Positions 1,787 through 47,445 of a stretch of 64,000 nucleotides of DNA are shown one piece after another. Every line of letters starts with the position of its first letter. Position 1 is the first letter of the stretch. Both the position numbers and the translations under genes were made by a program. Below the pieces are notes generated by a model. It was not told the DNA's origin and ran no database searches. It saw only the letters and a program-made list of their open reading frames with translations. The DNA is from Phoenix dactylifera (Eukaryota; Streptophyta; Magnoliopsida; Arecales; Arecaceae), in contig NC_052400.1 in assembly GCF_009389715.1 (NCBI RefSeq), positions 19,747,674-19,811,673 on the forward strand. The letters run 5' to 3'.

Positions 1787-4700
1787 ACAAGGATTATGCT
1801 CCAGATATATGGTTGTAAGCTTCTCCCTTGAACCCGATACAGCTAATTCTAAGCCCTCCAATGATGCTATTTGGTTGTCGTTAAGCCATAAGTCTTCTAA
1901 CCTGCATATTGCAATGATAAATGCCTAGAAACAAGTAGTGGTTAATGAGATATTAGGGAAAAAGTATTACAAACCTTGTCAAGTTCTCAATATCCTCGAT
2001 AGCAGTAAGTTTATTTGATGAAATGTCTAAGACACGCAGATTTACTAAGGTAGCTAAACCTTCCATTTTCTGAATACCATTGTGGCTCAGATACAGTTCT
2101 TCTAGTGCTACACATTCCTGAAAAGAAATAAGACAAAATCAGCATTTAGAATGAAGACCAAAACTCATCAAAGCAACAAGAACATAGACTAAAATTTATA
2201 CTTGAAACCCTGTCATGCACGTCAATCGGTTGCTCTGCAAACTAATTTTTCTGATACAGTTCAGTCCGCACAAGTTCACCATGCGGATACGATTTCTTCC
2301 GAGCCACAACTCTTGCAAATTTGTCAATGTCTGCAAGTTCTCCATTATCTGAAATGAAATTCAAACTGTTAAGTAAAAGAAAACAAGTTTAGCCATGATT
2401 TGGAGTTTAATGGGGATTTTGTTAAAGAATGAAGCATCAATGATCACGGTGAGGCTTCAACAAGCTTTTGCATAACCAAGTTCAAAAGTTTCACTTCTAA
2501 AAAAGTGCTTTTTACATTTTTCTAAAATGCATGAGAGAATCCATTAAGGTAATAACTCACCCGTAAGTTGTTTGAACCAAGTTCAAGAATTCGCAGTGCA
2601 TGCAAATGCTCAAGTTCCTCCATCTTGGTTACTTCATTCTTTGAAACATAAAGCTCTTCTAGTGTGTTTGATACCTTGGACAAACCATTCAATGAAGATA
2701 TCTCATTGAATGAGACATCAAATACAAGGAGGTTCTTGAAAATGCTAACATCAGGTATTTTTCTGAGCTTGTTGTCCCTGAGTACCAGCTCCTGCAGAAT
2801 AGCGCATTTTTCAGGTAATAAGAGCATAGAGCAGTAATAACTTGCACTCTCATACATGCAAGAACCCAATAGTTTTATAGTGTATTCCATGTGCAGAAGA
2901 GATGATGGCTTTCTCTAGTTGTCCTAGCAAGACACACTACAAGATCTTGCTACCAGAATAGTAGTTTGGGACCTTGTTTGCTACATATTATAAAATGTTT
3001 TGTACCTTTAGATTTGAATGGAAGCTCCTCTCTTGCTGAATAATTTAGGGATGTAAGCATGAGTACTGTCACAAGTGATGATTATAGAATTTTTAACAAG
3101 TATACAAGATAAATGATGTTTCTCATTTATTATATCGTTATAAAAGTTATACATGCATATTCATCTACTGCTATGTTATTGCCATATATTTGTCCTATTT
3201 TTCAGTATTTTCCATACCTACAAGCGGGTAGGTTGAAAAAACTTATATTTAAAAAATATAGACCCATATATGATTCCGTAAAAGCTCTTCAATCTTTATT
3301 TCAACATAACTTTAAAGTTAAGCAATGAAAACCATCATACACTTTTTGCTGCCGTGCAAGCTAACCTTCACAACTAGCAGTGTCCCACATCGCAGTTTAA
3401 GTTCAGATTGTTTTACTTACTAAAATAATCATCTCCGGTGAACACTAGAGAAAAGATTTTTTTTAAAAGATTAACTAGTATTTGCAAGCATGTAGTTCCC
3501 TTCATCACCAGTCGAAAAAGTAATAATCAGATCAAAAAAATTATTGATTACTTTTTAGCTCTGAACAGAATACAACACTAGAACTCATCATTTCTCTCAA
3601 GGATAAGAATGTGAGAGAGGGTCAACCAACTAAACAATATTGTCCAAGACATGGAGAATGTGGCACGTGGCTGTCAATTTGCACCACCCCAGTTCACCAG
3701 ATTTTATTAATTGCCCTCGGACAATGGCGCTTGTTGCTGGAAATTGGACCCGGGGGCCGCCGCGAAGCCGGGGAAGGAGGAGCTCCGCTGCTACAGGGGG
3801 CGGACGGCGGTGCGCCGGCCGGCTGCGCCCTCCACTGCGGGGGGGTGTGTAAGTCCTGCAAGGAAAACCGGTGGCCGGGCTCCCCGGCGCCGGCCCTCCG
3901 ATGCCTAAGTCAGAGGGGGCAAGTATGTGGAGAGAGCAGGGAAGAGAGTATATGGAGAAGACAGCAAGAACATTTGGATAAGATAAAGAAGACGAAGAGG
4001 ATAATGTCCTCAATTGTGTCTGTGCTTCCCGGCGGGTTCAGTCCCGGGGATCTGTTTCCGTTTTTTGTTGTCCTCCCCCCTTCACTTGGTTCTCCCAGGT
4101 TCCCTTTTATAGGGGGGGATTACGTTACCTGGGAGGTAACCGGGGGATTTGTCCCTGTCTGTGATAATTGGGTACGATTTGGCCCATTTATGGCGTAGTG
4201 GAGAACGGGGCCGAATCAGACCGGAACCAGGGAGTTGTCACGGTCGATCGGACCTGTTGGAGTGGTTGAACCGCCGGCCGTAGCGGGCCTGGGGTCTGTG
4301 GATGGTAAGTGCATTTATTACCGAATGAACCGGCGGCCAGGTAGAGCCATACGCTCTGATGGTTCAGTGATCCGGAGATCGTCTTGGGCCGTGTTCATTA
4401 AATGCCTGAGTGTATCGGAGACTTGAGGGAGTCTCATGCATTAATGGCAGATTGTGCCGAACGCCTGCGGAGATCTTATGCCTTGATGGCTTGGAGATAG
4501 TGGCAGGTCGCAAGCCGTATGAGTTGTCAAGTCCCTTGGACTTTAGGCGGGGGTTGAACATTTGATAAAGGCATCGGTTCGGCAAGGGTGCCGAGCCGAG
4601 CTGGTCGCCCAATGGGGCGCCCTGTGGCGGGGCTGCTTTGAGTACTCCTGGTCGGCGCCCTTTAGGCGAGCACCTTCTAGCAGAGCGCCTTGGCGCTGTC

Positions 4701-7700
4701 TTTGGTCGGCACTTTCTAACCGAGCAGCTTACTTTGGGTGGGGCACCTCTTGGCGCGCGCTCTGGTCGACGCCCTCTAGTCAAGCGCCTTCCTGGTCGGC
4801 ATCCTTTGGCCGAGCAGCTTTTCGGTCGGTACTCCTTGGCCGAGCAGCTTTTCGGTCGGTCCTCCTTGGCCGAGCGGCTTTCCGGTCGGCGCTCCTCGGC
4901 CGAGCGGCTTTCCGGTCGGGGTACTTCGGCCGAGCGGCTTTCCGGTCGGCGCTCTTCGGCCGAGCGGCTTTCCGGTCGGCGCTCTTCGGCCGAGCGGCTT
5001 TCCGGTCGGCGCTCTTCGGCCGAGCGCCTCCGTGGATGTATGACTTAGGGTTTTTCCCCTAACACTACCCCCCGACTTCCGAGCTCCAGTCGGCTATCAG
5101 CTGGAGCGCGGGAAGTAGCTTTAATTGGGTTATTACGAATTCCCAAAATTTCGATTTACTGCGCGTTTTGAGCTATCGAACGCTTCAAGGTGCCTTTAAT
5201 AGGCGGCGTCTCTTCTTTCCCGAAGAGCCTCATTATCGGGACACCTTTTGCGAAGCGTCCTCGCGTTGTGGGCTCATGATGGGGCCGCACGATCTTCGAT
5301 TGCGGACGCCTTTCCGCGCGATCCGATGGGGCGCTTCGACGTTCGAAGCGCTAGCCCTAATTAAATGCGTCGCTCTGTCTTTTAGACCGACACGTGTTAT
5401 CATCTAACCAGGACGCAGCGCTTTCTTCGCTGATCCGGGCCGTTGGGGAGGTCTATATAAACTCTCCCCCGGCCCCCTGTTCTCTTTCCATTGCTTTCTG
5501 CTTCCAGCTTCCTATTCTCCCAGTCTTCCTCAAACCGAAGTCCCTTCTCTCCGGCTTCCTTCCCAGGTCCCCCTTCTTTTTGATTTCCCTCTCTTGTAAT
5601 GGGTTCTTTGCCTAGCGAAGTAGTATCCACCATGAGTGTCCTGGAGGTCGAGATGACCGAAGAGTGGTTTTTCCCTCTTCACGGGTTCCGTTTGGAACCC
5701 GCCAGGCGAAGGGATCGGGTAACCGATCCTCCGGTAGGCCGGATCGGAGTGCACTCGGAGTCACTCTGGGCCGGCCTCCGATTTCCTCTCCACAGCTTTG
5801 TGAATGAGTTGCTGGCGGTATGCCAGTTGGTTCCGGCGCAACTCACTCCAAATGCTTGGAGGACAGTGATGGGTTTCCTGTCACTGTGTTAACTACAGGG
5901 GATTCCTACCTCTGTCAACGTCTTCCGGCGACTTTTTATTTTCAAGTCGAACCCGGGAGACGGGGAGTGACTCTACATTGCCCTCCGGGCGGGTCGGCCA
6001 CTTTTTCATGGTGCCCCCTCATCCATTCATGGTTGGAAGGAGAAATTCTTCTTCCTGGGCTCTAAACGGTCCTGGGGGTTTGACCCCAGGTGGAGGCCGG
6101 CCCAGCTTAAATCCATCGACAGGCTCCCCCAGCTTTCTCCGCGTGAGCAGGAGATCTTTGACACCATCCGCAGCCTTGGGGACGGGATTTTGCTGAATGG
6201 CCTCATTAGCGAGGACGCCCTGGTGAATGTGGGCTTGAGCTCGGCACGTCCTCAGGGTAAGGATAGTTACAGCAACTTTTTATTTCCTTATTGTTCTAAT
6301 GTTCTAATTTTGCTTATCTTTGCAGACATCGCAAAAATGGTGACCAAGAGTGAAGTCCTTTACGCCCGCTTCCAGAAGAGGGCAGCCGAGCTCTCGGGGG
6401 AGCCCGCGGAGCCGAGAAAGAAGCAGAAGGTCTCGGTAACCTCGACTCCCTCGACGGCGGTGGTGGCCGAGGCGGGTTCTTCTCGCCCTACGCATCCCGA
6501 GGCGGGGCCTTCTCGTCCCGCTATCTCCGAGGCGGGGCCTTCTCAGCCCGCGCGCCCTGAGGCTGATCGGAGAGAGGGCGCGGGCTCCGGGGGCTCGGGC
6601 TCCAGAACCCCGATGGCGCCCCCATGCCCGGCGCCCTTGGTGCAAGTCCCTGGTCGGCAGGACGCTCCAGTTGCCGACCAGGGGAGGAGTTCAGCGGGTC
6701 CCGTGCTTGCACGCCCCGCTGTAGTTGTGCGGCGGTTAGACCAGCCGCTCGCCCGACCCCAGCCCCTTAGCTCCCAGCCGGGGAGCGGTCAAGGAGCCTC
6801 GGGGTCGGCTCCACCTAGGCCAGATGGCGCTGGCCTCCCGGGCCCTTTGAGCTCGGAAGAACGGGTGCCCTTCGCACCCACCTGGTCGGTGTTCGAGGGC
6901 GATTCGGCCCTCGAAAACCCGCGAGTGGCGCGCGAAGTTTTTCGGCTCGCGCTGCTCCCGACCGGGCCATAATGCAGTCCATGAGCTACAACGCTTTTAT
7001 GGACGCTACACGCTGCAACTCCGTCCGGGTAAGCAAAATTTTTCGCCTGAGTAATCTGTATTGTTTTTCTACTAGCGGCGCCTTATGTTTTCCTTTTCGT
7101 CTTCTTTACAATATTTGCACGAGACGGAGATGCTGATGCACCTGGTTCAAGAATACCGGGAGAAAGCCTGGAGGTGCCAGCGCGGCTATGAGGAGGCCCA
7201 GAGAAGGTACATGGCCGCCGAGGCGAAGTACCAAGCCTCCGAAGAGAAGTACCAGGCCTCTGAGGCCGAACAACGGGTGCTCCAAGAGAAGGTCGGAGCA
7301 TCCGATGAAAGGATTCGAGCTCTGACCGCCGAGCTCGATGAAGAGAAGGGCGCGCACGCATTGGCAAGGTCCGAGCTGCGCGCCGCGGAGGCTCGATTGG
7401 CTAAGGCCGAGCAGGCGTTGGCCTCCCACGAGCAGGAGGTGGGAAATGCCCGCCTCCGACATTCGGAGCTCGAGCAGGAGCTGAGGGGCCTCGAGCGGAG
7501 AGCCGCTTACCACGAGGCCCGGGAGATAGAGGCCCGGGAGAACGCCCAAAACGCAGTGAAGCTCTTCCGTGAGTCGGAAGAGTTTCACGAACTCATGGCT
7601 GAGGAGGGCGTGAACGGGCTGATCCAAGGCTTCCGGGATTTCCGCAATCAGCTGCGGCGGCTTCTCCCGGATTTTGATGTTAACCTGCTCCAGCCGGGAG

Positions 7701-10700
7701 CAGGGAGGGCGGAAACAGAGGCAGAAACTCCGGAGGCGGAGGCAGAAACTCCGGGGGCCGAGGCGGCCATAGCTGTCCCCGAAGTGACCGAGGTCGCCCC
7801 CGAGGCTACTCCTATGGCTGCCGAGGCCATCGAAGAGGTACCGGCAGCCGAGCCAACCACTCCTGGTACTGCCGAGGCCGAGGTGGTCGAGCTCGAGCCT
7901 CCGATGTAATTTTGTCATTTCTTGTAAAGTCGGGATGGCTTCCCATACTTGTAAGGGCCAAACCCGGATTTTGTACTTAGCCTACGGGCCTTTTTGAAAT
8001 GAATATACATTTCTTTTTTGAAAACTCGTCTGTCGTAGCCTAAGTTTTTCTGCTCGGATCCGTTTTAGGTTCCGAGGATATGGGCTCTAGGGCCTCAGCT
8101 TTTTCCGCCACAGGGTTTGAGTCTGAGTTTGGCTTGCCGAGCTCCATTGCTCGGTTCTTCGACTAGTGGTATAACAACGCTTGTGCTTATACCAAGGATT
8201 TGGGCTCGGAAAGTTTTTCCGAGCCTAGTCCAGAATTCGACCAAGCCCTAGGGCGGTCGTTAGGACTTAAGACTTCTTAATGCGGCGAATTTCGAATCCG
8301 GGCCTCGAGTTGCCGGGGCGAACCGGATTCTTCTCTTGCAAATGGATTGGATACTCGTCAGCTCGTGACGGGGATTCACCGGATTTAGTACAATAATGTG
8401 TCGGTGTCATGAGCACTCCTTCGCCGAGGCGATTGAAGACGCTCCTCTGCTCGGTGTCCGTTCTTTGAGGACATCGGCAGAGAAATAGATAAAATGATGC
8501 AGAAACATTAAATACATGGGTACCTTGTACCGTGTGCGTCCTGGCGCCGAGGCGACTGAAGACGCTTCTCTGCTCGGACTCCGTTTTTGGAGGGCGTTGA
8601 CAGAGAAATCCAATAATAGGTAATGTAAAGACATTAAATAAATAGGTACCTTGTACCGTGTGCGTCCTGGCGCCGAGGCGACTGAAGACGCTTCTCTGCT
8701 CGGACTCCGTTTTTGAAGGGCGTTGACAGAGAAATCCAATAATAGGTAATGTGAAGACATTAAATAAATAGGTACCTTGTACCGTGTGCGTCCTGGCGCC
8801 GAGGCGACTGAAGACGCTTCTCTGCTCGGACTCCGTTTTTGGAGGGCGTCGACAGAGAAATCCAATAATAGGTAATGTAAAGACATTAAATAAATAGGTA
8901 CCTTGTACCGTGTGCGTCCTGGCGCCGAGGCGACTGAAGACGCTTCTCTGCTCGGACTCCGTTTTTGGAGGGCGTCGACAGAGAAATCCAATAATAGGTA
9001 ATGTAAAGACATTAAATAAATAGGTACCTTGTACCGTGTGCGTCCTTGCGCCGAGGCGACTGAAGACGCTTCTCTGCTCGGACTCCGTTCTTTGGGGACG
9101 TCGGCAGAGAAATCCAAGAATAGGATAGACAATGTAGAGACATTAATGTAGAAACATTAAGTAAATGGGTACCTCTCATGCAGTTGGAGTTAAGTGCTTC
9201 AGGTCGACTCAGCGGCCTTCTTTGGGTTGTGGTCGACTCAGCAGGGTGCCCCCACTCAGATCGGGGCGTGTTGTCGTAAGAGGCGTCGAATGGCGTTGAA
9301 AGGCGTCGAATGGCGTCGAATGGCGTCGAAGTGTCGTCGAATGGCGTCGAATGGCGTCGAAGTGGCGTCGAATGGCGTCGAAGTGGCGTCGAATGGCGTC
9401 GGATGGCGTTGGATGTCGTCGAAGTGTCGTCGAATGGCGTCGAATGGCGTCGAATGGCGTTGGATGTCGTCGAAGTGTCGTCGAATCGGCGTCCCGAGCT
9501 TAGCCAGAGCATCATTGGAGACGCATACAGGAGACGGACTTCGTCCGTTTAGCGATCGTGCGCCCTATTCGGGGCGACGTTTGGTCGTTTTTTGGATTCT
9601 CCGACCTGGAAATAGATAAAATATTGAAATTATTTGAAGCCAAAGTGGCGTCCTGTACCTTTTGGAGATATTTTGATGGCTTCCGAGCTTCGAAGTCCCT
9701 TAGGACTTAGCTTGGCACTAGCTTTCTTTGGCTCGATTTTCTGGGGGAGGTGTTCTGCATTCGGGCTTCTGAGCTCGGGCTTCGGAGCTTGGCAGCCTTC
9801 TGAGCTCGGCAGCCTTCTGGACCATCAAAGGATTTAGCTTCAAAGTACTTTCTTGGGGTAGAATCTCCTATGAATCTAGCCAGAGGAGCGCTCATCCTTT
9901 GGAAGGCATACAAAATAAGGCATCAGCCGAGCTTTCATTATGTACTAAAATCCTTTTTTTAAAGCCTTGCAATGATGAGGGAAATAGCTACAGCGTCGTC
10001 ATAAAGAGGGCTCAACACCCTTTTGGTCTTCATCAGAAAAGGAGATGTGACTTTCACAGTGCACGGATGCTTTGAGGAAGCTCTTTTTTCCGAGCTCGGA
10101 GCTTCTGGTGCCTCTAGTTGCCCGCCCTCTGATGGTATTGATGATGCCCGTGAGAGGTCAGTTATCATTCTGCTCCTTATGCGGCACTGGATTTTGTTCC
10201 TCGGGCTCTCTCCTGTAGGCATGATCACGGACAAAATAACTCAACCGACCTCGGCGGACAAGTGCCTCGATCTCATCACGAAGCTCGTAGCAATCCTCCG
10301 TATCATGGCCGCGATCTCGGTGGAAGCGGCAGTACTTTTTCGAGTGCTTCCGCGACTCTGTCGGACGCATTCTCAATGGAGGTCGGAGGTAGCCCCGACC
10401 CTCAATCTCCATGAGGATTTCTGCTCGGGTGGATGTGAGAGGAGTGTACGTCTGAAATTTTTGGAGGGGAGACCCCGGGCGAGCTAGGCTCTTGGGCCAA
10501 GGAGGCTCTTTCTCATGCCAGGGGAATCTGCTACTTGGTTGGGAGTGCTCCTGGTGCTTCTTCTGCATCTTGGCAGGTTGTTCGGCTTCCTCCCGCCGAG
10601 AGGCCATAGCTTCCTCAGCCTTGGCGTACTTGCGAGCTCGAGCCAACATTTCGGTGAGGTCCGCAGGGAAGTTCTTCTCGATAGAGAAGAGGAACCTGTA

Positions 10701-13700
10701 AGACCGGGCTCCAGTCTTTAGTGCCGACATGGCGATTGACTGGTCCAGCTCCCGGACTTCCCATGTTGCGGCAGTAAACCGATCCAAGTACTCCTTGAAG
10801 GACTCTCCCTCCTTTTGTTTGATGTCAAGGAGGGAGTCCGACGTCCGCCGCTGGGGCTGGCTAGCGGCAAAATTACTGGCAAACTGCCTGCCGAGCTGCT
10901 CAAAGGAGGAGACAGTACTCGGCTTCAGCCCGGTGAACCAAAGCCGGGCCGGTCCTCGGAGCGTTGCTGGAAAGGCTTTGCACATCATGGCCTCCGAGGC
11001 TCCTTGTAGGGCCATTAAGACCCGATAACTCTCCAGGTGGTCGAGGGGGTCGGCCCTGCCGTTGTAAGGCTCCACCTGGGGCATCTTGAACCGCGGCGGG
11101 ACTGGTTCGTCATCAATTTGCTGGGAGAAGGGGGACTTCGTATTGAACTCGAAGTCGCCGTTATGTCCTGACTTCCTCCCGTGGAGTGCCTGGATTTGAC
11201 GTTCCAGCCTCTCGACCTTCCGGTCGAGTTCATCGTTCTGGAGGATCGCTGCAGCGGTTCGTTCGAGCGCAGGTTGTCCTGGAACCGATTCAGCTTCCGA
11301 AGGCTGTGGCCAGCCTCCGTGGCCTTCGGCTGGGTGCTCTCTCCAAAGGGAGGCCTGGACTTGGGAGTCCTGACCTCGAAGGTGAAGTCCGCTTGTGGGA
11401 GGCTCCGGTTGAACTGGAGCCGGAGGAGGCGGTGCCGTTGGGATGCCCCTGGGCTGCAGGCTTTGGACAGCGGTAGCCAGGGCCTGCACCTGTTGTACCA
11501 GGGCATCGAACTGCTCCGGCCGAACTTGATGAACCGACTCGGTCGGAGGTGATGAGTTTCGGACGGAACGCTCCGGGCTAGGTGGAGGACGTTGAGAGGC
11601 ATTGGAAGCCCCTTTGCTTCTTAGCTTCATGGCAGCGAACTCGGTCCCTTCCTCTAGCGCCAACTGTTGCTGGAAATTGGACCCGGGGGCCGCCGCGAAG
11701 CCGGGGAAGGAGGAGCTCCGCTGCTACAGGGGGCGGACGGCGGTGCGCCGGCCGGCTGCGCCCTCCACTGCGGGGGGGTGTGTAAGTCCTGCAAGGAAAA
11801 CCGGTGGCCGGGCTCCCCGGCGCCGGCCCTCCGATGCCTAAGTCAGAGGGGGCAAGTATGTGGAGAGAGCAGGGAAGAGAGTATATGGAGAAGATAGCAA
11901 GAACATTTGGATAAGATAAAGAAGACGAAGAGGATAATGTCCTCAATTGTGTCTGTGCTTTCCGGCGGGTTCAGTCCCGGGGATCTGTTTCCGTTTTTTG
12001 TTGTCCTCCCCCCTTCACTTGGTTCTCCCAGGTTCCCTTTTATAGGGGGGATTACGTTACCTGGGAGGTAACCGGGGGATTTGTCCCTGTCTGTGATAAT
12101 TGGGTACGATTTGGCCCATTTATGGCGTAGTGGAGAACGGGGCCGAATCAGACCGGAACCAGGGAGTTGTCACGGTCGATCGGACCTGTTGGAGTGGTTG
12201 AACCGCCGGCCGTAGCGGGCCTGGGGTCTGTGGATGGTAAGTGCATTTATTACCGAATGAACCGGCGGCCAGGTAGAGCCATACGCTCTGATGGTTCAGT
12301 GATCCGGAGATCGTCTTGGGCCGTGTTCATTAAATGCCTGAGTGTATCGGAGACTTGAGGGAGTCTCATGCATTAATGGCAGGTTGTGCCGAACGCCTGC
12401 GGAGATCTTATGCCTTGATGGCTTGGAGATAGTGGCAGGTCGCAAGCCGTATGAGTTGTCAAGTCCCTTGGACTTTAGGCGGGGGTTGAACATTTGATAA
12501 AGGCATCGGTTCGGCAAGGGTGCCGAGCCGAGCTGGTCGCCCAATGGGGCGCCCTGTGGCGGGGCTGCTTTGAGTACTCCTGGTCGGCGCCCTTTAGGCG
12601 AGCACCTTCTAGCAGAGCGCCTTGGCGCTGTCTTTGGTCGGCACTTTCTAACCGAGCAGCTTACTTTGGGTGGGGCATCTCTTGGCGCGCGCTCTGGTCG
12701 ACGCCCTCTAGTCAAGCGCCTTCCTGGTCGGCATCCTTTGGCCGAGCAGCTTTTCGGTCGGCGCTCCTTGGCCGAGCGGCTTTTCGGTCGGCGCTCCTCG
12801 GCCGAGCGGCTTTCCGGTCGGCGCTCCTCGGCCGAGCGGCTTTCCGGTCGGCGCTCCTCGGCCGAGCGGCTTTCCGGTCGGCGCTCCTCGGCCGAGCGGC
12901 TTTCCGGTCGGCGCTCCTCGGCCGAGCGGCTTTCCGGTCGGCGCTCCTCGGCCGAGCGGCTTTCCGGTCGGCGCTCCTCGGCCGAGCGGCTTTCCGGTCG
13001 GCGCTCCTCGGCCGAGCGGCTTTCCGGTCGGCGCTCCTCGGCCGAGCGGCTTTCCGGTCGGTGTACTTCGGCCGAGCGCCTCCGTGGATGTATGACTTAG
13101 GGTTTTTCCCCTAACAGCGCTTATATTTGGATCAGAAAGGAAATTGAGCACGCCCATCCAATTATCTAATTGAGGTTGCCATCCAAGTGATGAATGACAG
13201 AAACAAAATATCACGACACAGGTTGAAACTTACAATGGTTAGCATTAAGATCACAGTTGAAATCAGCAACAGGGCACAGATTAAGATTACTCTCAGGGTT
13301 GAGTCTGGAGTGCTGGAAATAATTAGGTGGTGGAATCCATTAAGATGCAACAATATGGTTACTACAGCATGAATAATACAGTGAATTACAGCTATAAGTC
13401 ATGAAAAAATAACCAAATTTGGTCCTCTTTAATTGTTTCTGGCTACTTAAAATGGCAATCTTTACACAAAAAAGTTAACAGAATTACAAGAAAAACATAA
13501 AAAAGAAACATAAAAAGGAAAAGGGGAGGGGGACTTACATGTAATCCAGAGATGGTATTCCAACCGGAGATGGGTTCCACGCCGTCGTCGTCGAAGAGGT
13601 TTTGCCGCAACGAAAGCTTCTTGAGATGCAAGAGGAGACCAATCCGCGGGTCCAACTTGGTGAGCCTATTGGCCGTGAGATCCAACTCTTCGAGGCTCTC

Positions 13701-13814
13701 CGGGATCTCGACCTCGCCGAGATCGTGAAGCTGGAAGCTCGTCAGATCGAGGCAGTGGACCTGTGACTCGTCCTCCACCCTCCCTTCCTCCCATCCGTTC
13801 CCATCTTCCTCCAT
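1787..13814 (-). CDS. SDS22-like protein phosphatase 1 regulatory subunit (partial, last exon missing)
   Basis: Leucine-rich-repeat protein of the SDS22/PPP1R7 family, known to bind the PP1 catalytic subunit and to act in its biogenesis and regulation in cytosol and nucleus. Five exons join in frame: 13814-13539, 2791-2561, 2348-2202, 2117-1975 and 1901-1787. Introns have GT donors and CAG acceptors and the phases agree. The start MEEDGNGWEE precedes an acidic N-terminus; then come about ten SDS22-type repeats of roughly 22 residues (LEELYVSKNEVTKMEELEHL, LQELWLGRNRIRMV, LEELYLSHNGIQKMEGL, LEDLWLNDNQIASLEGL). The model reaches LEHNPC, where the family continues with a short cap of about 30 residues. 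Reading on past the donor gives V then stop. The cap exon was not found to the left and is probably outside the window. Intron 1 is about 10.7 kb, of which 9.4 kb is a retrotransposon in the same orientation. Apart from the missing exon the gene looks intact. Confidence 0.9.
3727..3731. repeat. Target-site duplication, left copy (GCGCT)
   Basis: GCGCT directly abuts the TG end of the left LTR at 3732 and is repeated exactly after the CA end of the right LTR. A 5-bp duplication is what LTR-retrotransposon integrases produce, so it fixes the element's boundaries. Confidence 0.93.
3732..5064 (-). repeat. 3' LTR of the intronic retrotransposon (1,333 bp)
   Basis: Direct repeat of 11665-13116. 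On the minus strand it begins TGTTAGGGG and ends CCAGCAACA, i.e. TG...CA. It is 119 bp shorter than its partner, accounted for by four fewer copies of a 30-bp internal unit and one extra G at about 4092-4098. Confidence 0.95.
4789..5028. repeat. 30-bp tandem array in the 3' LTR (8 units)
   Basis: Eight head-to-tail 30-bp units of the form TTTCCGGTCGGCGCTCTTCG followed by GCCGAGCGGC. The three last full units carry CTCTTC, a variant not dominant in the partner LTR. The period is a multiple of three, so it stays open as an AFRS/RRSSAERLSG-like repeat peptide in several frames; I do not regard these as proteins. Confidence 0.95.
5065..5080 (-). promoter_or_regulatory. Polypurine tract of the intronic retrotransposon
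   Basis: On the minus strand GGAAGTCGGGGGGTAG directly precedes the 3' LTR start (TGTTAGGGG). This is the expected location and composition of the plus-strand primer. Confidence 0.75.
5454..5460 (+). promoter_or_regulatory. TATA box of the antisense gene
   Basis: TATATAA in the context GTCTATATAAACTC lies about 140 bp upstream of the ATG at 5599 and is followed by a long pyrimidine-rich leader (CCCTGTTCTCTTTCC and similar). This looks like a genuine plant promoter inside the element, facing away from the adjacent LTR and opposite to gag. Confidence 0.6.
5599..7909 (+). pseudogene. Antisense Transposase_28-like / coiled-coil gene inside the retrotransposon (decayed)
   Basis: A three-exon gene opposite to gag. 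Exon 1 (5599-6256) reads FFPLHGFRLEP, GLRFPLHSFVNELL, LTPNAWRTVMGF and, after the breaks, FRRLFIFKSNPGD, RPLFHGAPSSIHGWKEKFFF, the pattern of the Pfam 'putative gypsy type transposon' family (Transposase_28). It carries in-frame stops at 5890 (TAA) and 5968 (TGA). Intron 1 is 6257-6325 (GTAAGG...TTTGCAG), 69 nt. Exon 2 (6326-7028) is an Ala/Pro/Ser-rich linker; its frame must shift by one near 6955-6965 to reach the conserved RAIMQSMSYNAFMD. Intron 2 starts GTAAGC at 7029 and its acceptor near 7110-7115 looks mutated. Exon 3 runs to the stop at 7909 and is a long coiled coil (LVQEYREKAWRCQRGYEEAQ onwards, then many E/A heptads) with an acidic Pro-Glu-Ala tail. Biochemical function unknown; this copy cannot make the full protein. 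Confidence 0.8.
7910..8409 (+). other. 3' flank of the antisense gene
   Basis: After the stop at 7909 there is T-rich sequence with AATGAATATACATTTC near 7996, a plausible 3' UTR/polyadenylation area. Nothing else recognisable is present before the 126-bp array. Confidence 0.35.
8410..9145. repeat. 126-bp tandem array within the retrotransposon
   Basis: Nearly six head-to-tail units with exact 126-bp spacing; for example the TACCTTGTACCGTGTGCGTC block starts at 8521, 8647, 8773, 8899 and 9025. Inner units are nearly identical, the outer two diverge. Because 126 is divisible by three, the minus strand stays open as a 42-residue repeat peptide, but it has no start context and no known homology; I treat it as a satellite-like array. 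Confidence 0.93.
9287..9490. repeat. 10-11-bp tandem array (GGCGTCGAAT type)
   Basis: About 19 short units alternating GGCGTCGAAT, GGCGTCGAAGT and GTCGTCGAAGT. CpG-rich and of mixed 10/11-bp period. Open in several frames as an artefact of the repeat. Confidence 0.9.
10158..11630 (-). CDS. gag: Retrotransposon Gag protein
   Basis: Intact ORF of 490 residues from the first ATG (11630, MKLRSKGASN) to 10158. Frame is open upstream to the primer-binding site, but without an ATG. Order of regions: a proline-rich N-terminus with a short coiled-coil stretch (VQQVQALATAVQSLQ), a second helix near LDRKVERLERQIQAL, then the Retrotrans_gag domain (YNGRADPLDHLESYR ... ALRGPARLWFTGL ... QKEGESFKEYLDRF), and near the C-terminus a knuckle-like motif CRFHRDRGHDTEDC. 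It would form the cytoplasmic particle that packages element RNA. No pol frame follows it: 10158 is followed by non-coding sequence and arrays. The type fits the Tat-like gypsy gags, inferred from motifs only. Confidence 0.9.
   Translation of the reverse strand: MKLRSKGASNASQRPPPSPERSVRNSSPPTESVHQVRPEQFDALVQQVQALATAVQSLQPRGIPTAPPPPAPVQPEPPTSGLHLRGQDSQVQASLWREHPAEGHGGWPQPSEAESVPGQPALERTAAAILQNDELDRKVERLERQIQALHGRKSGHNGDFEFNTKSPFSQQIDDEPVPPRFKMPQVEPYNGRADPLDHLESYRVLMALQGASEAMMCKAFPATLRGPARLWFTGLKPSTVSSFEQLGRQFASNFAASQPQRRTSDSLLDIKQKEGESFKEYLDRFTAATWEVRELDQSIAMSALKTGARSYRFLFSIEKNFPADLTEMLARARKYAKAEEAMASRREEAEQPAKMQKKHQEHSQPSSRFPWHEKEPPWPKSLARPGSPLQKFQTYTPLTSTRAEILMEIEGRGYLRPPLRMRPTESRKHSKKYCRFHRDRGHDTEDCYELRDEIEALVRRGRLSYFVRDHAYRREPEEQNPVPHKEQNDN
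11646..11663 (-). promoter_or_regulatory. Primer-binding site of the intronic retrotransposon
   Basis: One base inside the 5' LTR the minus strand reads TTGGCGCTAGAGGAAGGG. Position and the TGGCGC start fit a tRNA-primer site. It is not the TGGTATCAGAGC site for initiator Met tRNA used by the other gypsy element in this window. I cannot name the tRNA with certainty. Confidence 0.7.
11665..13116 (-). repeat. 5' LTR of the intronic retrotransposon (1,452 bp)
   Basis: Direct repeat of 3732-5064 with the same TG...CA ends. It is followed in element orientation by the primer-binding site and gag, which marks it as the 5' LTR. It contains 12 copies of the 30-bp unit against eight in the 3' LTR. 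Confidence 0.95.
12721..13080. repeat. 30-bp tandem array in the 5' LTR (12 units)
   Basis: Twelve head-to-tail 30-bp units, most of them identical (core GGTCGGCGCTCCTCGGCCGA). The homogeneity, and the CTCCTC variant replacing CTCTTC of the other LTR, show that array turnover continued after insertion. Confidence 0.95.
13117..13121. repeat. Target-site duplication, right copy (GCGCT)
   Basis: GCGCT immediately follows the right LTR (which ends CTAACA at 13116) and matches 3727-3731 exactly. Confidence 0.93.
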
Positions 13815-13870
13815 CTCGCGTGGTAGTAGGGGCGATCAAGAACCGGATCGAAACCCTAAAACGAAGTAGA

Positions 13871-39274: not shown

Positions 39275-41361
39275 TAGATAAAAGGACAGTTTGCACTCTG
39301 AACTCGCCAAAGTGCAACTAGGATTTAAGTATGCTGACCGGAAAGAGCACCATATGTTAGATTTATGCTGGTTTTATCTCTCAACTCCCTGAATTCAGGG
39401 AAGTTGTGGGAGATGCTGAAAGGTTCCTAAAAGGCTTAGTTTAACATGGTCCAGCTTGTAACCATATTTTATTTTCCTAGATATAGTTTTGAGGTATTTT
39501 TTTGGTGAAAAAAATAAATTATATTTTATTTCATATAAGGAGGGCCGGCCCCTCCCCTGCGTCCACTGGTGAACCACTTCCTGCTCTGCTTTATAAAAGA
39601 AGTTTGGGATTTCCAATGATAAAGAGGATAGGAATGAAAATTTTAATCAAGAAATAAAAATTTTCTTCCCATCGAAGGCGCTCTCAAAAATTAAAAAGAT
39701 TGAGTTGAAAACCGGAGTAATTTAATAGGCTAAAGATCAGAAAAAATTCTTCATTTTCTGCACTAGCTTCAAACTCTCAAAATAGAAGCAAGGATCGAAG
39801 AAGTTTGAGACAAAAACTCTTTTTTTTTTTTCCCATTGGTTCCAGACTAATTTTGATCTATGCATAAATGGAGTCCTGAGCTCGTCTATCATTCTTTAGA
39901 TGAAAACTACTTTTGATCCAAATGACCGAAATCAACAATAAACTTCATCAAAGATCTTCTTGAGAAAAAACTCATCCGACAAGCATCATTCCCAGTAAGT
40001 CATGTGGTAAGTCATTGTGACAAATCCCAAGAATCATCATTCATCAGACCAAACTGACCCATAAATGTCGCCTCATCAATAGCATCTGATTGCCAAAAAA
40101 ACAAGGAAATGAGCCACCGGCCAACATTATAATTCATGACAGCGTTTACCACTCACTCTCCACCAGACCATGGGCATTATATTTCTGAAAAAAACACTAG
40201 GAAGCTATCAAGTGGTTCATGATGTTGCAAGTCCAATTGGGTTTCGACAGTCGCACTACATTGTGATTCGGATACAGCACAGATCACGAAGATCATTATT
40301 GAAGTTGAAGGTGAGGAGCTTTTGTTGAGCCCCCTCCTCCTTTTGCACCTCTGTTGAACCTGGCAAGAAGATGAGCACAACCAACATGTCATCGCCGTAT
40401 GTACACGCTTACAGGTAAACTTGGATCAGTAACAAGAGATAAAAATCTTTCCTTTTGTTTTAATAATTGATTTTAGTTCTAGATTTCTAATCAACTGCTT
40501 GAAAGAAAGCTATAGGATTTACTGCTATCTTTCTGTAGAGCATTATTACATATACGTTTAGCTTTTGTGGAGTTTTCTGGTCCAGAAATCTGAAAAACAG
40601 TAAAGACTAAAGGATTAATTGCGACAAAAATCTTGAATTATTTGTGGGCTTTCAATTTTCTTCTGAACTTCAATATAGTGCAATCAGATTATCAAATTTT
40701 CATTTTTTTCTCAGTTTGGATCCTATCTGTGAATTTCATTTGGCTGCTATGATGGAGGGGTCACGTACTATCACGTGGCTTGCTAAAAGTTGATGATTCA
40801 TTTTTTTCTTGGCTGATGTGGAAAAAAAGAAGTCCTAAAGTTTTTCTCTTTTTTTTTCTCCTCTCTTCTGACTAGGATTTTACTTCTCCATTCTGTTCCT
40901 CCTTCTCGTCTGACAACTAGAGATCGACGATGACCACGAGGTGAGCAGCAGCGAGAGTGAAAAGGAGGGAGGAGAGTTGGAAGATAAATATGGTACTCAT
41001 GATAGTCCAACCTAGTCCATCTTCAAACCCACAGTCTAGCCTTTTATTATATCACTATCTTTATCATTCAGTGAAGGAGAACGAAGAAAAGAAAAAAGCA
41101 AAAGACTGAAATTTTTATAGTGTTGTTGATCTCTGCAAACTGAAATTCTTCTTTTCTTTTTTCTCACCCAAAAACACAAACAATGGAATCAAAAAAATGA
41201 AGAAACAGGGAAAACAAAGATGGAGAAATATGACAATGGTTCCAATCCATTACTTGGTGGCTCCTAAAAGCTAATTTTTTTTGACTTGATAATCTATATA
41301 TCAATATTTAAAGCACATGAAGCACTAACTTATTACAAATACTTCGAAATTCCAACTAAAG
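36863..41361. other. Intergenic region with microsatellite, no genes recognised
   Basis: Long AT-rich spacer. A perfect (TA)n run lies at 39244-39272. Short homopurine and poly(T) stretches occur (for example near 39821). No ORF shows a recognisable domain; the 132-residue frame 36720-37118 overlaps the last TMX2 exon in another frame. Confidence 0.5.
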
Positions 41362-41660
41362 TGATGCGGGACAGCTGATTTAGAGAAGAAATTAGGAAGG
41401 GGAAGAAGGAGGGAGGAGTCTGGAGTCCACCAGATGCCAAAGCAAAGTCTTTTTTTTTTTAATCCAAAAATTCTGCTGAACAGTAGATATGGGGGTGCCA
41501 TATATAGCCCCAATACAACTACCCATGATCCCCACAAATGAGATCATGTAACTATCCATGATCCAACAACATCATGGGTCACTACACTAGCTAAATACAA
41601 TCAAACAAGCCAGCAACTAATAAAAGACGAAAATACATAAGAAATAAATGAAAATACACA
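41362..41660 (-). repeat. 3' LTR of the truncated gypsy element
   Basis: Near-identical to 47146-47445. On the plus strand it runs from TGATGCGGGACAGCTG to AAATACACA. Contains CCATATATAGCC, a possible TATA region on the minus strand. Confidence 0.88.
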
Positions 41661-44600
41661 AGAATGGAATCATGCTTACTTCTAGTCTTTGGCAATCCTA
41701 GCACGAAATCCATACTAATGTCCTGCCAAGGACGATCTGGGACAGGAAGGGGAGTATATAAACCAGTGTTTTGTTTGCGCTGTTTGGATAGTTGACAAGT
41801 ACGACACTGACTAACAATTTTTGCAACATCCCGTTTTAAACTAGGCCAATAAAATCTTTGTTCGACCATATCAATGGTCTTATTTCTACCAAAATGGCCA
41901 GCTATTCCTCCCGCATGAAGTTCCCAAACAAGAAAATCTCTAAGGGATGTTTGAGGGATACATAGCTTGTTTCCTCGGAACAGAAAGGCATCAACCACAA
42001 GGTAATCGCTATTGTCCCTGGTGTGACCATCTAAGACGCTTGCATAGATCTCAGCGAAGTCTGGACAAGTTGCATAATCGTCAATCATACGTTCAAATCC
42101 AGTAACATTTATGCTTACCGACAAAAGTAATGCTACACGTCGGCTTAAGGCATCAGCTGCTTTGTTGTCAATACCTGCTTTGTGACACAACACGAAGGTA
42201 TATTCTTGAAGAAATTCAGCCCACTTTCCGTGTCGTGAATTCAATCGCTTTTGGGAATTTAAGTACCTCAAAGCTTCATGGTCGGAATATAATACGAATT
42301 CTTGAGGTAGCAAATAGTGACGCCAGTGACGCAGCGCTTGTACAACTGCATAAAATTCTTTGTCATAGGTGGAATATTTTCGTTTGGCATCATTCAGCTT
42401 TTCACTGAAGTATGCGATAGGATGCTTTTCTTGGCTTAGGACACCACCTATACCTATACCAGATGCGTCACAAGAGACTTCGAAAACTTTAGTAAAATCT
42501 GGGAGGCGCATCACCGGGGCTTCAGTCATTCTAGTCTTGATCTCTTGGAATGCCCTTGAGGCCGCAACGGTCCAATGAAATTCACCTTTCCGGATACAAT
42601 CCGTAATCGGTGCAGTGATCGTACTAAAATTCTTGATGAACCTTCTATAAAAGGTGGCTAGGCCGTGGAAGCTTCGCACCTCAAATAATGTAGTGGGTTC
42701 GGGCCATTCAAGAATAGCTTGGACCTTCTGTGGGTCTGCTGAAACACCCTCAGAAGAAACAACGAATCCTAAGAAGATTACACGATCTGTCATAAATGAA
42801 CACTTCTTAAGATTCGCATATAGGCTTTCTTTTCTTAGTGAATTGCAAACCAAACGTAGGTGCTCAAGGTGTTGTTCCTTATTTTTGCTGTAAATTAAGA
42901 TATCGTCAAAGTAGACTACAAGGAATTTACCCATGAAAGGTCTTAGTACTTGGGTCATAATTCGCATAAATGTACTAGGTGCATTTGTTAATCCAAAGGG
43001 CATGACTAGCCACTCGTATAACCCATCCTTGGTTTTGAAAGCTGTTTTCCATTCATCACCTGGACGGATACGGATTTGGTGGTAACCACTCTTAAGGTCA
43101 ATTTTGGAAAAGATAGTGGCACCTGCCATCATATCAAGCATGTCATCCAATCGTGGTATTGGAAACCGATATTTAACCGTTATCTTATTAATTGCCCTGC
43201 TATCCACACACATTCTCCAAGTGCCGTCTTTTTTGGGCGTTAGAAGCGCCGGCACCGCACACGGGCTAAGACTTTCTCGGATGAACCCTTTTTGGAGTAG
43301 TTCATCAACTTGCCGTTTCAATTCAGCGTGTTCGATCGGATTTAGTCTATAATGAGGCAAGTTCGGGAGAGTCGCCCCTGGAACCAAGTCTATGGCGTGC
43401 TGAATGTCACGCATAGGGGGAAGCTCATCAGGAAGGTCCTCGGGAAAGAGATCCTTAAATTCTTCCAGAACATGATGAACTTCCTTCGAAAAATCTATTT
43501 GAAAATCAGGAACAACTTCTTTGGACACTAACACAAGGACTATGGATCCTTGGGATGCTGCTTTCTCAAATTCCTTAGGGCCAATGATTTGAAGGCGCTT
43601 TTCAACCTTCACATCCTTCTTTCCAGCATTAGAAGGTCTAGGTGGTAGAGGGTTTAGTCGAATTTTCTTTCCTTGGTGAACAAAAGAACAGGAATTGGAC
43701 TTGCCATAAATGGTCACATCCAAATCATAAAGCCATGGTCGACCAAGGATGATGTGTCCAACGTCCATGGGAATAACATCACACCAGACCTTATCATTAT
43801 ATTCAGAAAAGTTGATTTGAACTAGACAACGCTCAGTGACTGGTATAGCGGTTTTATCCACCCAAGACACATTATAAGGGTTAGGATGAGGCACTGTCTT
43901 TAACTGTAGCTTCTTGACAGTTTTTGTGGATACAACATTGACACTACTCCCACTGTCAATGATAACCTTACAGCTATGTTCGCCACATTTGATATAAGTG
44001 TGAAATATGGATCGACGTCTCCAGTCATCATCTTCTTGCTTAGGTTGTGTAAGGACACACCTAACTACGCCTAAAGGAGTGGAACCCTCAAGTGAGCCGG
44101 ATTCCTCACCTTCATCTGACTCTTCAGGGTCTATCTCTGGTTCATAGACCAACTCATTCTCTTCATCATTTCTATCTTCTTCGATGACCAGTGTTTTCTT
44201 AGTAGGACATTGACTAGCTCTATGCCCAAAACCAAAACATCTGTAACACTGATCTCTAGAAATTTTGGGTGGTTCACTTAAAATTCCCTTATTCTTTTGA
44301 TCATTAATTTTTGGGGACTCGGTCGCTTGATTTCTAATATTAGGCTTACTCCAAGTATTAGTTTGACTACCGTGGGTGTTCTTATAATTGGTCTCCTTAA
44401 GATCAAATTGCCTAAAGGTTGTCTTATTAGTATAACGCTCAATGTCTTGGACAAGTTGATAAGCATGTTCTAATGAATTGACCTCACGCAGAATAAGCTC
44501 TTTTTGTAAATCATCTCGCAATCCGGACCTAAACCTAGAAAGGGTCAATTCCACACTCTCACGTGCATCACATCGCATGAAGAACTCATCAAAGCGAGCG

Positions 44601-45232: not shown

Positions 45233-47145
45233 ACTCTAGAATTTAAAAATCCTAGATATATAATTAACATTCAAAATAAAATCAACAATGTTGAATAAAA
45301 GACGACTTTTGACGTAGTCTTGGTTACCTTCGAATTAGCACAGGTGATAACTAAATATCAGGACCTTAGGTACTGCTAACCTTGGTCTGGATCATGCAAA
45401 ATCTTTATAGGTTAATCTAATGAAAGTGGGGTCCTTCAAATTGATTTGGGTTTCACCAGATTCAAGTAAAATTTTCTAGTTGCCTTTCGAGGATTTGAAA
45501 ATAATTTGTAAGGCTCAATATGTGTTTTCAAGGGGCATAGGCTTTTATAAAATTAAAGTCCTATCTCAAACCGACAACATGAAGTGAAAACAATAATAAT
45601 CTAAAGATAAACTAGTTTATAGGGAAAGGCTGAAAAATAATTATGTAAAGGAAAGATACGACCTCTTCTTACAGATCTGATTCAGTGGATGAGTTTGGAT
45701 GTCAGAGTGTAGGATGCAGAACCGGAACCCGACGATTTGTAGAAGATGCTGCTGAAAAATGGCTGACTGCAGTGTCGTTGTAGAAGCCCAACTCACGGCA
45801 GGGTCTGGATCCAGGTGCAGGGTCTGAAAGCTGGGCCCGCAAGATACTGGGCCAGAGGATCAGCTGGGCTCGCGTGACAGCAGGCTAGATGCTGGGCCGG
45901 CCCACTCGCCCGAAAGCGGAGACTAGATGGGACCCGAAGCTTCTGGATGGCTTCGGATCCCTCTGTGTGATCGGGAGAGGAGCTGAGGGAGATCGGGTGG
46001 AAGAAGAGAGGCAGACGATGGGTGGCGATCTTCGTTTTGGGGAGCGAAGGAAGCGGCGAGGGTGGACGATGGAGTCGGCAACGGAGGTGGAGGTGGTGGC
46101 GCGGGGAAAGAGATGGGAGGGAGGTTTCGGTGAGATGGGAGGGAGAAGAAAAGAAGATTAGGGTCTGAGGGATGAGGTATGGAAGGGAGAAGGGTCTCGG
46201 TGAGCTGGAAGGGGGAAGAAATGGGAGAACTCGAGGGTTGGGGAAAGAGTGGAGGCAATGGAGAAGATGGAGGGAGTGGCGGCGGTGTGACCGGGCAGCG
46301 GTGTATGTGGTCGCAGAGGAAAGCGGCGGCGGCGGTGGATGAGGATGGTCCGATGACAAGAAGAGAGGCGGCTCGGTGGCAGCAAGAGAGCGGCGACAGT
46401 GGCGGTGGAGGCGCGGCAGCGAAGCGTCGACGGCGGCAGTGGTGGCGGAACCCTAGATCTAGGGTTCTTCTCCGTCGACGACAAGGTACGATCTTTCTTG
46501 CTTCTTTTTTTTTTTTTTTTTTTTTTGAACAGCACGTGCAAGTCACGTGCTGCGTCTGGAGCTGTCACGTGTGATGTCACGTGCGAGACTCACGTGAGGG
46601 TCATGTGACCTTTTTTTTTTCTCTCTTTTTTTTTTTTTTTTTTTGGAAACGGATCCGGGTTAATAGACTGGGTAACGGGTGAGGGACTTACCCGTTAGCT
46701 GGTGTTTCTTCAACCTCCCGACGGTTTTGGGAGGTGGTACCGGGCTCTGCGGCTACGGTTGCCGAGCGGAACCTGTGGCCTGCTGCGATGGACAGCAATC
46801 GATTACAAGCCCTTGACTGGTTGGAGAGATTATAGAAGAAGAAACCTCTCCTTGCTCCTTCTGGTGAAAGCCGATCGAGAGGGAGGTGAACAGAGACGTA
46901 AGACTCTCCCTCTTCTTCACACTGTGCGCTGGTCGTCGGCATTCATCATGCTCCGGTGTCCGTGGTGCAAAGTCTTCCGTGAAGAACTCGTGCGGCATAC
47001 GAAGCAGGGGCAGCCTGTCCATACACCAGGTCTTTGGGGATTAGGACGGCTACAGATGTACCGAGAGGGAGTCAGGAGGGAAATAGAATGACAGGATCAG
47101 GGCGTTGGCACAGAGGCAAAGCCCTGGCTGGCTCTGATACCAAAC
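45233..47145 (-). other. Long leader of the truncated gypsy element
   Basis: Between the primer site and the gag start lies 1.9 kb with no recognisable protein. A GC-rich stretch (about 45880-46480) with GGCGGC repeats is open in several frames on both strands, and is flanked by poly(T) runs near 46505 and 46625. CACGTG occurs several times between 46530 and 46605. Confidence 0.5.
47130..47145 (-). promoter_or_regulatory. Primer-binding site (initiator Met tRNA type)
   Basis: Minus strand reads GTTTGGTATCAGAGCC immediately after the 5' LTR end GCATCA. TGGTATCAGAGC is the classic complement of initiator Met tRNA. Confidence 0.85.
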
Positions 47146-47445
47146 TGATGCGGGACAGCTGATTTAGAGAAGAAATTAGGAAGGGGAAGAAGGAGGGAGG
47201 AGTCTGGAGTCCACCAGATGCCAAAGCAAAGTCTTTTTTTTTTTTAATCCAAAAATTCTGCTGAACAGTAGATATGGGGGTGCCATATATAGCCCCAATA
47301 CAACTACCCATGATCCCCACAAATGAGATCATGTAACTACCCATGATCCAACAACATCATGGGTCACTACATTAGCTAAATACAATCAAACAAGCCAGCA
47401 ACTAATAAAAGACGAAAATACATAAGAAATAAATGAAAATACACA
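47146..47445 (-). repeat. 5' LTR of the truncated gypsy element
   Basis: Partner of 41362-41660. Followed in element orientation by the primer-binding site. Identity with the partner extends a few bases further (AGAA), to exactly where integrase sequence begins in the left copy. Confidence 0.88.

What the first reader, a model, noticed from the sequence alone, without database searches (positions are those of the whole stretch)
5454..7909. Intron-bearing, TATA-driven gene carried antisense inside an LTR retrotransposon
Seen: opposite to gag, the element holds a plus-strand gene with a TATA box, pyrimidine leader, Transposase_28-like exon 1, a clean 69-nt intron in phase (6257-6325), a second intron donor at 7029 and a coiled-coil terminal exon. 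Known: extra antisense frames occur in some plant gypsy elements. Inference: the introns survive retrotransposition because genomic RNA is made from the other strand and cannot be spliced at them, so their survival is evidence that this gene is expressed antisense, from its own promoter, in active members. What such a coiled-coil protein does for a gag-only element is unknown; a packaging aid or a regulator of sense RNA are possibilities.
Basis: partly seen in the sequence, partly recalled or inferred. Interest (0 to 1): 0.78.

Follow-up and report, generated by a model that had tools for sequence, protein, structure and literature searches.

The report
Spliced antisense gene in palm retrotransposon
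A jumping element in a palm-like plant genome carries, on its opposite strand, a two-intron gene for a probable nuclear protein that selection has preserved across many copies; the kind of gene is known, its conserved introns add strong DNA evidence that it is expressed backwards, and this particular copy is dead.

Summary
The features named are present. In a 9.4-kb gypsy element (3732-13116, sense strand minus, TSD GCGCT) the plus strand carries TATATAA (5454), a pyrimidine-rich leader, ATG 5599, a Transposase_28 exon, intron 1 (6257-6325), intron 2 (7029-7111) and a coiled-coil exon ending at 7909. This copy is a pseudogene: two stops, a 4-nt shorter exon 2, a lost intron-2 acceptor. Among 40 aligned copies GT is kept at 40 and 38 donors, AG at 39 and 39 acceptors; 12 of 40 are wholly intact. 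Families about 60% identical in exon-1 protein keep both introns at the same site and phase while intron-1 length varies. Exon 1 shows purifying selection in the antisense frame (pN/pS 0.24; shifted frames 1.3-1.4). An NLS-like motif is in 40 of 40 copies. The gene normally sits beside pol (20 of 22 copies sampled). The window element is a pol-less chimera with a gag-only subfamily that lacks the gene (3 of 3 examined). It is a Retand-type antisense TRP28 accessory gene, a known kind (compare Grande gene23). Its introns are not mentioned in the papers I could read. No RNA data; function is inferred.

The parts
3732..5064 (-). LTR next to the antisense gene (3' LTR of the element)
   Evidence: 98.5% identical to the other LTR over 1298 bases; TG...CA ends, TSD GCGCT at 3727-3731 and 13117-13121
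11665..13116 (-). 5' LTR; carries a longer 30-bp tandem array than the other LTR
10158..11723 (-). gag frame, open (521 codons stop to stop)
   Evidence: PF03732 E 4.7e-12
5454..5460 (+). TATA box of the antisense gene
   Evidence: TATATAA in 34 of 40 copies, TATTTAA in 6; TATAWA within 400 nt upstream of the ATG in 24 of the 26 (of 30) diverged loci whose ATG was found
5461..5598 (+). pyrimidine-rich leader
   Evidence: 80% C+T
5599..6256 (+). exon 1, Transposase_28 (TRP28) module; broken here by stops at 5890-5892 and 5968-5970
   Evidence: PF04195; 658 nt in 36 of 40 copies; pN/pS 0.244
6257..6325 (+). intron 1, phase 1
   Evidence: GT 40/40, AG 39/40 copies; same site in 25 of 30 diverged loci, 99-118 nt, GT 23/25, AG 23/25
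6326..7028 (+). exon 2: NLS-like PRKKQK, then low-complexity; 4 nt shorter here than the commonest length, frame shifted near 6961
7029..7111 (+). intron 2, phase 0; acceptor lost in this copy (AA)
   Evidence: GT 38/40, AG 39/40 copies; same site in 9 of 9 diverged loci inspected, of 30
7112..7909 (+). exon 3: long helix (coiled coil), acidic tail, stop TAA
   Evidence: AlphaFold from the single sequence: helix 2-165, block means over 90 to about residue 140, pTM 0.41; pN/pS 0.35-0.38
8379..9134 (.). 126-nt tandem repeats; probable switch point between the pol-family 3' part and the gag-only 5' part

Best explanation
It is a decayed copy of the antisense TRP28 accessory gene of a Retand-type Ty3/gypsy family. 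In the working form (shown by comparison of copies) the gene lies between pol and the 3' LTR, on the strand opposite gag-pol, with a TATA element near the 3' LTR, three exons and two spliceosomal introns, and encodes about 720 residues: a TRP28 module, an NLS-like PRKKxK motif, a low-complexity linker and a long coiled coil. Inferred steps: RNA polymerase II transcribes it toward pol; the transcript is spliced twice; the protein enters the nucleus, oligomerises through its coiled coil and acts there in trans on the element's own chromatin or DNA, most likely to regulate or protect the element's expression (HBZ-like or anti-silencing), less likely to help nuclear import or integration of its cDNA. 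The introns persist through retrotransposition because the genomic RNA is the complementary strand, on which they are not splice sites. The window element is a young pol-less recombinant whose copy of the gene is dead; whether it died before or after this insertion is open.
For: Gene structure: 40-copy alignment with conserved start, stop and splice sites. Exon 3 is a multiple of 3 in 32 of 40 copies, and 19 of the 27 that differ from the commonest length differ by threes, against 1 of 11 for intron 2. Both introns shared at identical site and phase by diverged families; intron 1 in 25 of 30 loci, lengths in all three classes mod 3, in-frame stop in 19 of 25; intron 2 in 9 of 9 inspected. Selection: exon-1 pN/pS 0.244 in the gene frame against 1.445 and 1.302 in shifted frames; the one sense-strand register that looks alike (0.250) holds 4-6 stops in each of the 36 copies. 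Between families median dN/dS 0.14-0.22 (30 of 40 own copies and 15 of 30 diverged loci used). Shared variants are enriched at third positions against private ones, Fisher p 0.0012 (counts, test). NLS-like motif in 40 of 40 copies and 25 of the 26 (of 30) diverged loci parsed. Promoter element in 24 of 26. Intron-less junctions, up to 2 mismatches: none in the genome for own-family intron 1, own-family intron 2 and diverged-family intron 1, against 114 intron-bearing sites for the last. Nuclear protein and own promoter are reported for maize gene23 (PMC7264820).
Against: No RNA evidence was available. Intron 1 of the own family is open in frame and a multiple of 3 in 37 of 40 copies, and its interior varies less (pi 0.038) than synonymous sites (pS 0.091), which leaves room for a retained-intron protein in this family: 13 of 40 copies stay open with intron 1 retained and intron 2 spliced, about as many as the 14 with both spliced. 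Exon 2 selection is weak (0.459, with a mirrored sense register at 0.524), and only 6 of the 15 copies that differ from the commonest exon-2 length differ by threes. The diverged-family intron 1 is a multiple of 3 in 8 of 25 and stop-free in 6 of 25. TRP28 has no relative among solved structures and the model of the exon-1 piece was poor, so the biochemical role is a guess. Elements without the gene exist, so it is not needed in cis for every relative.
Confidence: 0.86

Rival explanations
1. The protein is an integration or nuclear-import helper: it binds the cDNA or integrase complex in trans and brings it to the nucleus.
For: NLS-like motif and coiled coil; the review PMC7264820 raises nuclear entry of the pre-integration complex for such proteins.
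Against: An internal, independent antisense promoter element conserved across families suggests regulation separate from gag-pol; nothing seen here links TRP28 to integrase.
Confidence: 0.25
2. The antisense RNA itself is the product (dsRNA with genomic RNA, small RNAs); the frame is incidental.
For: Antisense transcription can form dsRNA, as PMC7264820 discusses.
Against: Frame-specific purifying selection, largely frame-preserving length changes in exon 3 and conserved splice sites point to a protein product; an RNA role could be additional only.
Confidence: 0.05
3. A captured host gene still carrying its introns, recently transduced in antisense.
For: Spliceosomal introns and a TATA promoter are features of host genes.
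Against: PF04195 matches number at least 150 in this genome (150 scored of 3465 candidates), with the same two introns in diverged families; the 12 proteins aligned match only PF04195. An ancient capture cannot be excluded.
Confidence: 0.08
4. Chance open frames and splice-like motifs in the non-coding 3' region of the element.
For: In the window copy the frame is interrupted three times.
Against: Selection, domain hit and intron conservation across families.
Confidence: 0.01

Closest known systems
Grande gene23 (maize Ty3/gypsy antisense accessory gene)
   Same: Antisense to gag-pol, between pol and 3' LTR, transcribed from its own upstream promoter, protein nuclear (as reported in PMC7264820, parts 1 and 2 of 3 read; of the 2013 primary paper only the title was seen, in reference lists)
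   Different: Here a conserved two-intron structure and a coiled-coil exon are shown; whether gene23 has introns is not stated in what I could read
Retand-lineage antisense TRP28 ORFs (PMC11963269; abstract, passages and part 1 of 2 of the structural results section read)
   Same: [quoted passage not shown] an earlier survey, PMC6317226, passages, found the domain in 23% of Retand elements); tandem repeats nearby; some antisense ORFs with SMC-like domains
   Different: That paper scores ORFs and its text holds no occurrence of 'intron'; here exons are joined across two introns and selection is measured across copies
HTLV-1 HBZ (spliced antisense retroviral regulator; splicing and coiled coil recalled, antisense and nuclear as cited in PMC11963269)
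   Same: Works like: antisense gene in an LTR element, nuclear, coiled-coil type protein
   Different: No homology claimed; an HTLV antisense promoter lies in the 3' LTR (PMC7264820), whereas this one lies in the internal region at 5454
Anti-silencing accessory proteins of plant Vandal DNA transposons (passage in PMC11728184)
   Same: Works like, if the anti-silencing reading is right: an extra element-coded protein that protects the element from host silencing
   Different: Different class of element; no homology tested
TR-GAG non-autonomous elements (name seen in a search listing; definition recalled)
   Same: gag without pol, as in the window element and apparently L083-L085
   Different: The window element additionally carries the antisense gene, by recombination with the pol-bearing family

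Membership tests
Retand lineage (Tat, Ty3/gypsy) antisense TRP28 accessory gene | PF04195 domain above the curated cut-off | tested here: met
   40.5 bits, cut-off 26.2, window; 12 of 12 aligned proteins
Retand lineage (Tat, Ty3/gypsy) antisense TRP28 accessory gene | Antisense to gag-pol and placed between pol and the 3' LTR | tested here: met
   Antisense to gag in the window. RNase H and integrase on the opposite strand beside the gene in L078 and L079; 18 of 20 further copies match that stretch, 17 largely within the RNase H-integrase frame and 1 mostly just past it, 2 without match. Window copy: no pol.
Retand lineage (Tat, Ty3/gypsy) antisense TRP28 accessory gene | Extra RNase H (aRH) between RNase H and integrase (criterion read in PMC6317226 passages) | tested here: met
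   L080, beside the diverged locus L048: RVT_1, RT_RNaseH, then RVT_3/RNase_H, then integrase; L078 and L079 show RVT_3 before integrase. The other two diverged neighbourhoods sampled showed no gypsy pol (L081: copia and MULE domains; L082: copia). Not testable on the window copy.
Retand lineage (Tat, Ty3/gypsy) antisense TRP28 accessory gene | RT phylogeny placing the family in Retand | not tested
   No reference RT set of plant lineages was at hand
Grande gene23-type gene | Own internal promoter driving antisense RNA | tested here: inconclusive
   Conserved TATA and leader; no RNA data
Grande gene23-type gene | Nuclear localisation of the protein | not testable with these tools
   NLS-like motif in 40/40 copies and 25/26 diverged loci is consistent only
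Spliceosomal-intron gene | GT-AG introns at conserved site and phase, interior free to vary | tested here: met
   splicing itself not observed
TR-GAG element | LTR element with gag and no pol | tested here: met
   Window: gag present; the pol stretches of L078 and L079 have no match in the element

The most novel reading that the evidence does not exclude
TRP28 genes are an ancient, plant-wide class of spliced antisense nuclear regulators in retrotransposons, a plant counterpart of HBZ that shields or tunes the element against host silencing. Their conserved introns also lock expression to the antisense strand: full-length protein can be made only from nuclear, spliced antisense RNA and never from genomic RNA.
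Probability: 0.2. Interest if true: 0.75.

Novelty: new member of a known kind. Interest (0 to 1): 0.45.

Why it matters
The role of antisense accessory proteins in plant retrotransposons is an open question in the papers read (PMC7264820, PMC11963269). Two introns kept at fixed sites through many rounds of retrotransposition, with frame-specific selection, argue from DNA alone that a spliced antisense product has been made and needed in source elements. That turns a list of unexplained ORFs into defined multi-exon genes: ORF-only annotation misses exons, and exact junctions are now given at which RNA-seq can test expression. It also separates the gene (carried by the pol-bearing family) from the gag-only context in which the window happened to show it.

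Tried and rejected
Dead copies as a source of others: two copies with exon-1 frameshifts (L025, L032) looked like one amplified dead lineage, but their flanks do not match and their deletions are at different places. No amplified dead copy was found among the pairs checked. L019 and L020 turned out to be one locus assembled twice, so the 40 rows are at most 39 insertions; only these two pairs were checked.

Dating the disabling changes of the window copy: the LTRs differ by 3 of 968 aligned bases outside the array. The gene has 12 private substitutions in 2311, more than that age predicts, so some may predate insertion, but no sampled copy shares the stops. Left open.

Further chimeras like the window: searches gave candidates; in two contigs (C248, C901) 1.5 kb was sampled where the gene might lie and showed no match. 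No second chimera was found, but the sampling was thin.

Structure of the TRP28 module: only the uninterrupted window piece 5971-6255 was folded, alone; poor (pLDDT 47.5), not searched further. PDB profile search: nothing below E 0.59. Viral contigs (first 97 residues) and prokaryotic genomes: no relatives confirmed.

My first script for intron 1 in diverged loci parsed only 5 of 30 because of a bad pattern and was replaced (25 of 30; L049, L055, L062, L073, L074 not parsed). Exon-2 stop counts were read in the wrong frame and are not used; one search replaces them. Papers PMC9784723 and PMC7730604 (passages) had nothing on antisense introns.
Full report
WHAT IS THERE. The window (contig C9 of a 773-Mb assembly; the size fits the 772.3-Mb date palm assembly whose abstract start I saw in a listing, PMC6794320, so date palm is an inference) holds a Ty3/gypsy element at 3732-13116. 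Its LTRs are 3732-5064 and 11665-13116, 98.5% alike over 1298 bases, with TG...CA ends and the 5-bp duplication GCGCT. Gag is on the minus strand (PF03732, E 4.7e-12). Outside the 30-bp array the LTRs differ at 3 of 968 aligned bases, so the insertion is young. On the plus strand lie TATATAA 5454-5460, a leader of 80% C+T, ATG 5599, exon 1 with PF04195 (40.5 bits against a cut-off of 26.2), intron 1 at 6257-6325, exon 2, intron 2 from 7029, and exon 3 to the stop at 7907-7909.

THIS COPY IS BROKEN. The frame meets stops at 5890 and 5968. Exon 2 is 703 nt where 25 of 40 copies have 707, and shifts frame near 6961. The intron-2 acceptor reads AA at 7110-7111 where 39 of 40 copies have AG. None of the 39 other copies has either of the two stops.

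COPIES. The genome search scored 40 of 1397 candidates; I aligned the window and the other 39. Donor 1 is GT in 40, acceptor 1 AG in 39, donor 2 GT in 38, acceptor 2 AG in 39, the start ATG in 39, the stop TAA in 40. Exon 1 is 658 nt in 36 of 40. Exon 3 is a multiple of 3 in 32 of 40; of the 27 copies that differ from the commonest length (798) 19 differ by threes. Of the 15 that differ from the commonest exon-2 length (707) 6 do. Of the 11 that differ from the commonest intron-2 length (83) 1 does. In 14 of 40 copies the spliced frame is open throughout; 12 of 40 also have the ATG and all four splice-site dinucleotides. If nothing is spliced 2 of 40 are open; with intron 1 retained and intron 2 spliced, 13. 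Two rows (L019, L020) are one locus assembled twice.

THE INTRONS ARE REAL AND OLD. A PF04195 search scored 150 of 3465 candidates in this genome, and none of the 14 control genomes had a match. Thirty loci were fetched; exon-1 pieces are mostly 55-65% identical to the window protein, L049 about 77%. In 25 of 30, intron 1 could be parsed at the same site and phase: GT 23 of 25, AG 23 of 25, length 99-118 nt (10, 8 and 7 loci in the three classes modulo 3), with an in-frame stop in 19 of 25. This matters because the window family's own intron 1 is 69 nt (68 in 3 copies) and open in frame, so the window alone could not prove it. Intron 2 sits at the same site and phase in the 9 loci where exon 3's start could be placed, with GT in 8 and AG in 8 by my reading. 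Patterns for intron-less junctions (up to 2 mismatches) found nothing in the genome (own-family intron 1; own-family intron 2; diverged-family intron 1), against 114 intron-bearing sites for the last. The matching own-family control pattern did not complete by the tool; there the denominator is the 40 of 40 aligned copies.

SELECTION. In 36 copies of equal exon-1 length pN/pS is 0.244 in the antisense-gene frame, 1.445 and 1.302 in the two shifted frames, and 0.989, 0.250 and 1.618 on the sense strand. The 0.250 register mirrors the wobble positions, but it holds 4-6 stops in each copy, so it is not coding. Exon 2 (25 copies) gives 0.459, with 0.524 in a sense register that holds 2-6 stops per copy; exon 3 (13, 6 and 5 copies) 0.359, 0.377 and 0.347. 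Between the window family and diverged families the median dN/dS is 0.221 (420 pairs), to L049 0.142 (30 pairs), within the window family 0.139 (435 pairs) (only the 30 of 40 own copies and 15 of 30 diverged loci with an open exon 1 were used). In exon 1, variants shared by copies are at third positions in 50 of 83 cases, private ones in 62 of 162 (counts; Fisher p 0.0012; copies are related, so p is nominal). Constraint therefore acts in source elements and is relaxed after insertion. Against a simple picture, the interior of the window family's intron 1 is itself rather conserved (pi 0.038; intron 2 0.113; pS of exon 1 0.091).

PROTEIN AND PROMOTER. A K-K/R-x-K/R motif (PRKKQK in the variants printed) follows intron 1 in 40 of 40 copies and in 25 of the 26 diverged loci parsed. 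The name NLS is recalled, not from a call. The window's exon 3 folds, alone, as one helix from residue 2 to 165 with high confidence, as expected of a coiled coil. TATAWA precedes the start in 24 of the 26 diverged loci (of 30) whose ATG was found, mostly within GGGTCTATATAAACC, against 0.06 expected per locus after simple base shuffling, although leaders differ in length (145 nt here, about 250-280 there, about 180 in L049).

THE CARRIER. L078 and L079, beside copies 98% identical to the window over the 1201-base query, have RNase H and integrase on the strand opposite the gene. Of 20 further copies sampled at the place where the window has gag, 18 match that pol stretch (17 largely within the RNase H-integrase frame, 1 mostly just past it) and 2 gave no match. 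The pol stretches have no match in the window element. Three elements with 99-100% the window's gag show, in the 5.1 kb next to gag, tandem repeats and then an LTR (79-88% alike), and no antisense gene (3 of 3). So the window element looks like a recombinant: gag side from a gag-only subfamily, 3' side with the gene from the pol family, switching near 9146 in shared 126-nt repeats. Of three diverged loci whose neighbourhood was sampled, one has RT, RNase H, a second RNase H and integrase in the order that PMC6317226 (passages) gives for Ogre and Retand elements (L080); the other two showed other mobile elements (L081 copia and MULE domains, L082 copia).

HOW IT WORKS. Shown: structure, conservation, selection. 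Follows from established knowledge: an RNA complementary to a GT-AG intron cannot splice it, so introns survive the RNA stage; they would decay if the antisense strand were not expressed. Inferred: expression from the TATA promoter, nuclear entry, oligomerisation, and a trans-acting role on the element's own chromatin or DNA. I put about 0.45 on regulator or anti-silencer (an anti-silencing precedent in Vandal DNA transposons is mentioned in PMC11728184), 0.25 on import or integration helper, the rest unknown; the confidence of 0.86 refers to the gene, its splicing and its protein-level selection, not to the role.

KNOWN OR NEW. Antisense TRP28 genes are reported for 97% of recently active Retand clusters (PMC11963269; an earlier survey found the domain in 23% of Retand elements, PMC6317226), and maize Grande gene23 is reported to be transcribed from its own promoter into a nuclear protein (PMC7264820, parts 1-2 of 3 read). 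The word 'intron' occurs in neither PMC11963269 nor PMC7264820, and searches listed no paper whose title or abstract start speaks of introns in these genes; the primary papers on Grande, RIRE2 and Retand were not read. Hence: new member of a known kind, with a structural feature that may be undescribed.

Noticed in passing
window 2525-2914 and 13443-13835, minus strand: Leucine-rich-repeat frames of what looks like one host gene (LRR_4 E 6.1e-11 and, below the family cut-off, 2.8e-05) flank the element on its sense strand, so the element probably sits in an intron of that gene in the same orientation.
   Followed up: partly
window 3732-5064 and 11665-13116: The 30-bp GC-rich tandem array inside the LTRs makes the two LTRs of one young element differ by 119 bp in length, so it changes quickly.
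   Followed up: no
window 8379-9134; L083-L085: 126-nt tandem repeats are shared by the pol-bearing family and the gag-only subfamily and look like the recombination point that made the window chimera.
   Followed up: partly
L049 around 2001 (oriented); L082: The closest diverged relative loses its match at the intron-1 border, where unrelated sequence begins; a copia element lies in the stretch fetched downstream, so a nested insertion there is likely.
   Followed up: no
window 41355-41664 and 47139-47449: A 311-bp direct repeat, 98% identical, about 5.8 kb apart: possibly the LTRs of another young element.
   Followed up: no
L081:1908-2405: Sub-threshold match to Transposase_32 (31.1 bits, cut-off 45), another plant-element accessory family, on the strand opposite the TRP28 gene of locus L063.
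   Followed up: no
L019 (C481) and L020 (C180): Same insertion with 99.9% identical flank on two contigs: the assembly holds some loci twice.
   Followed up: yes
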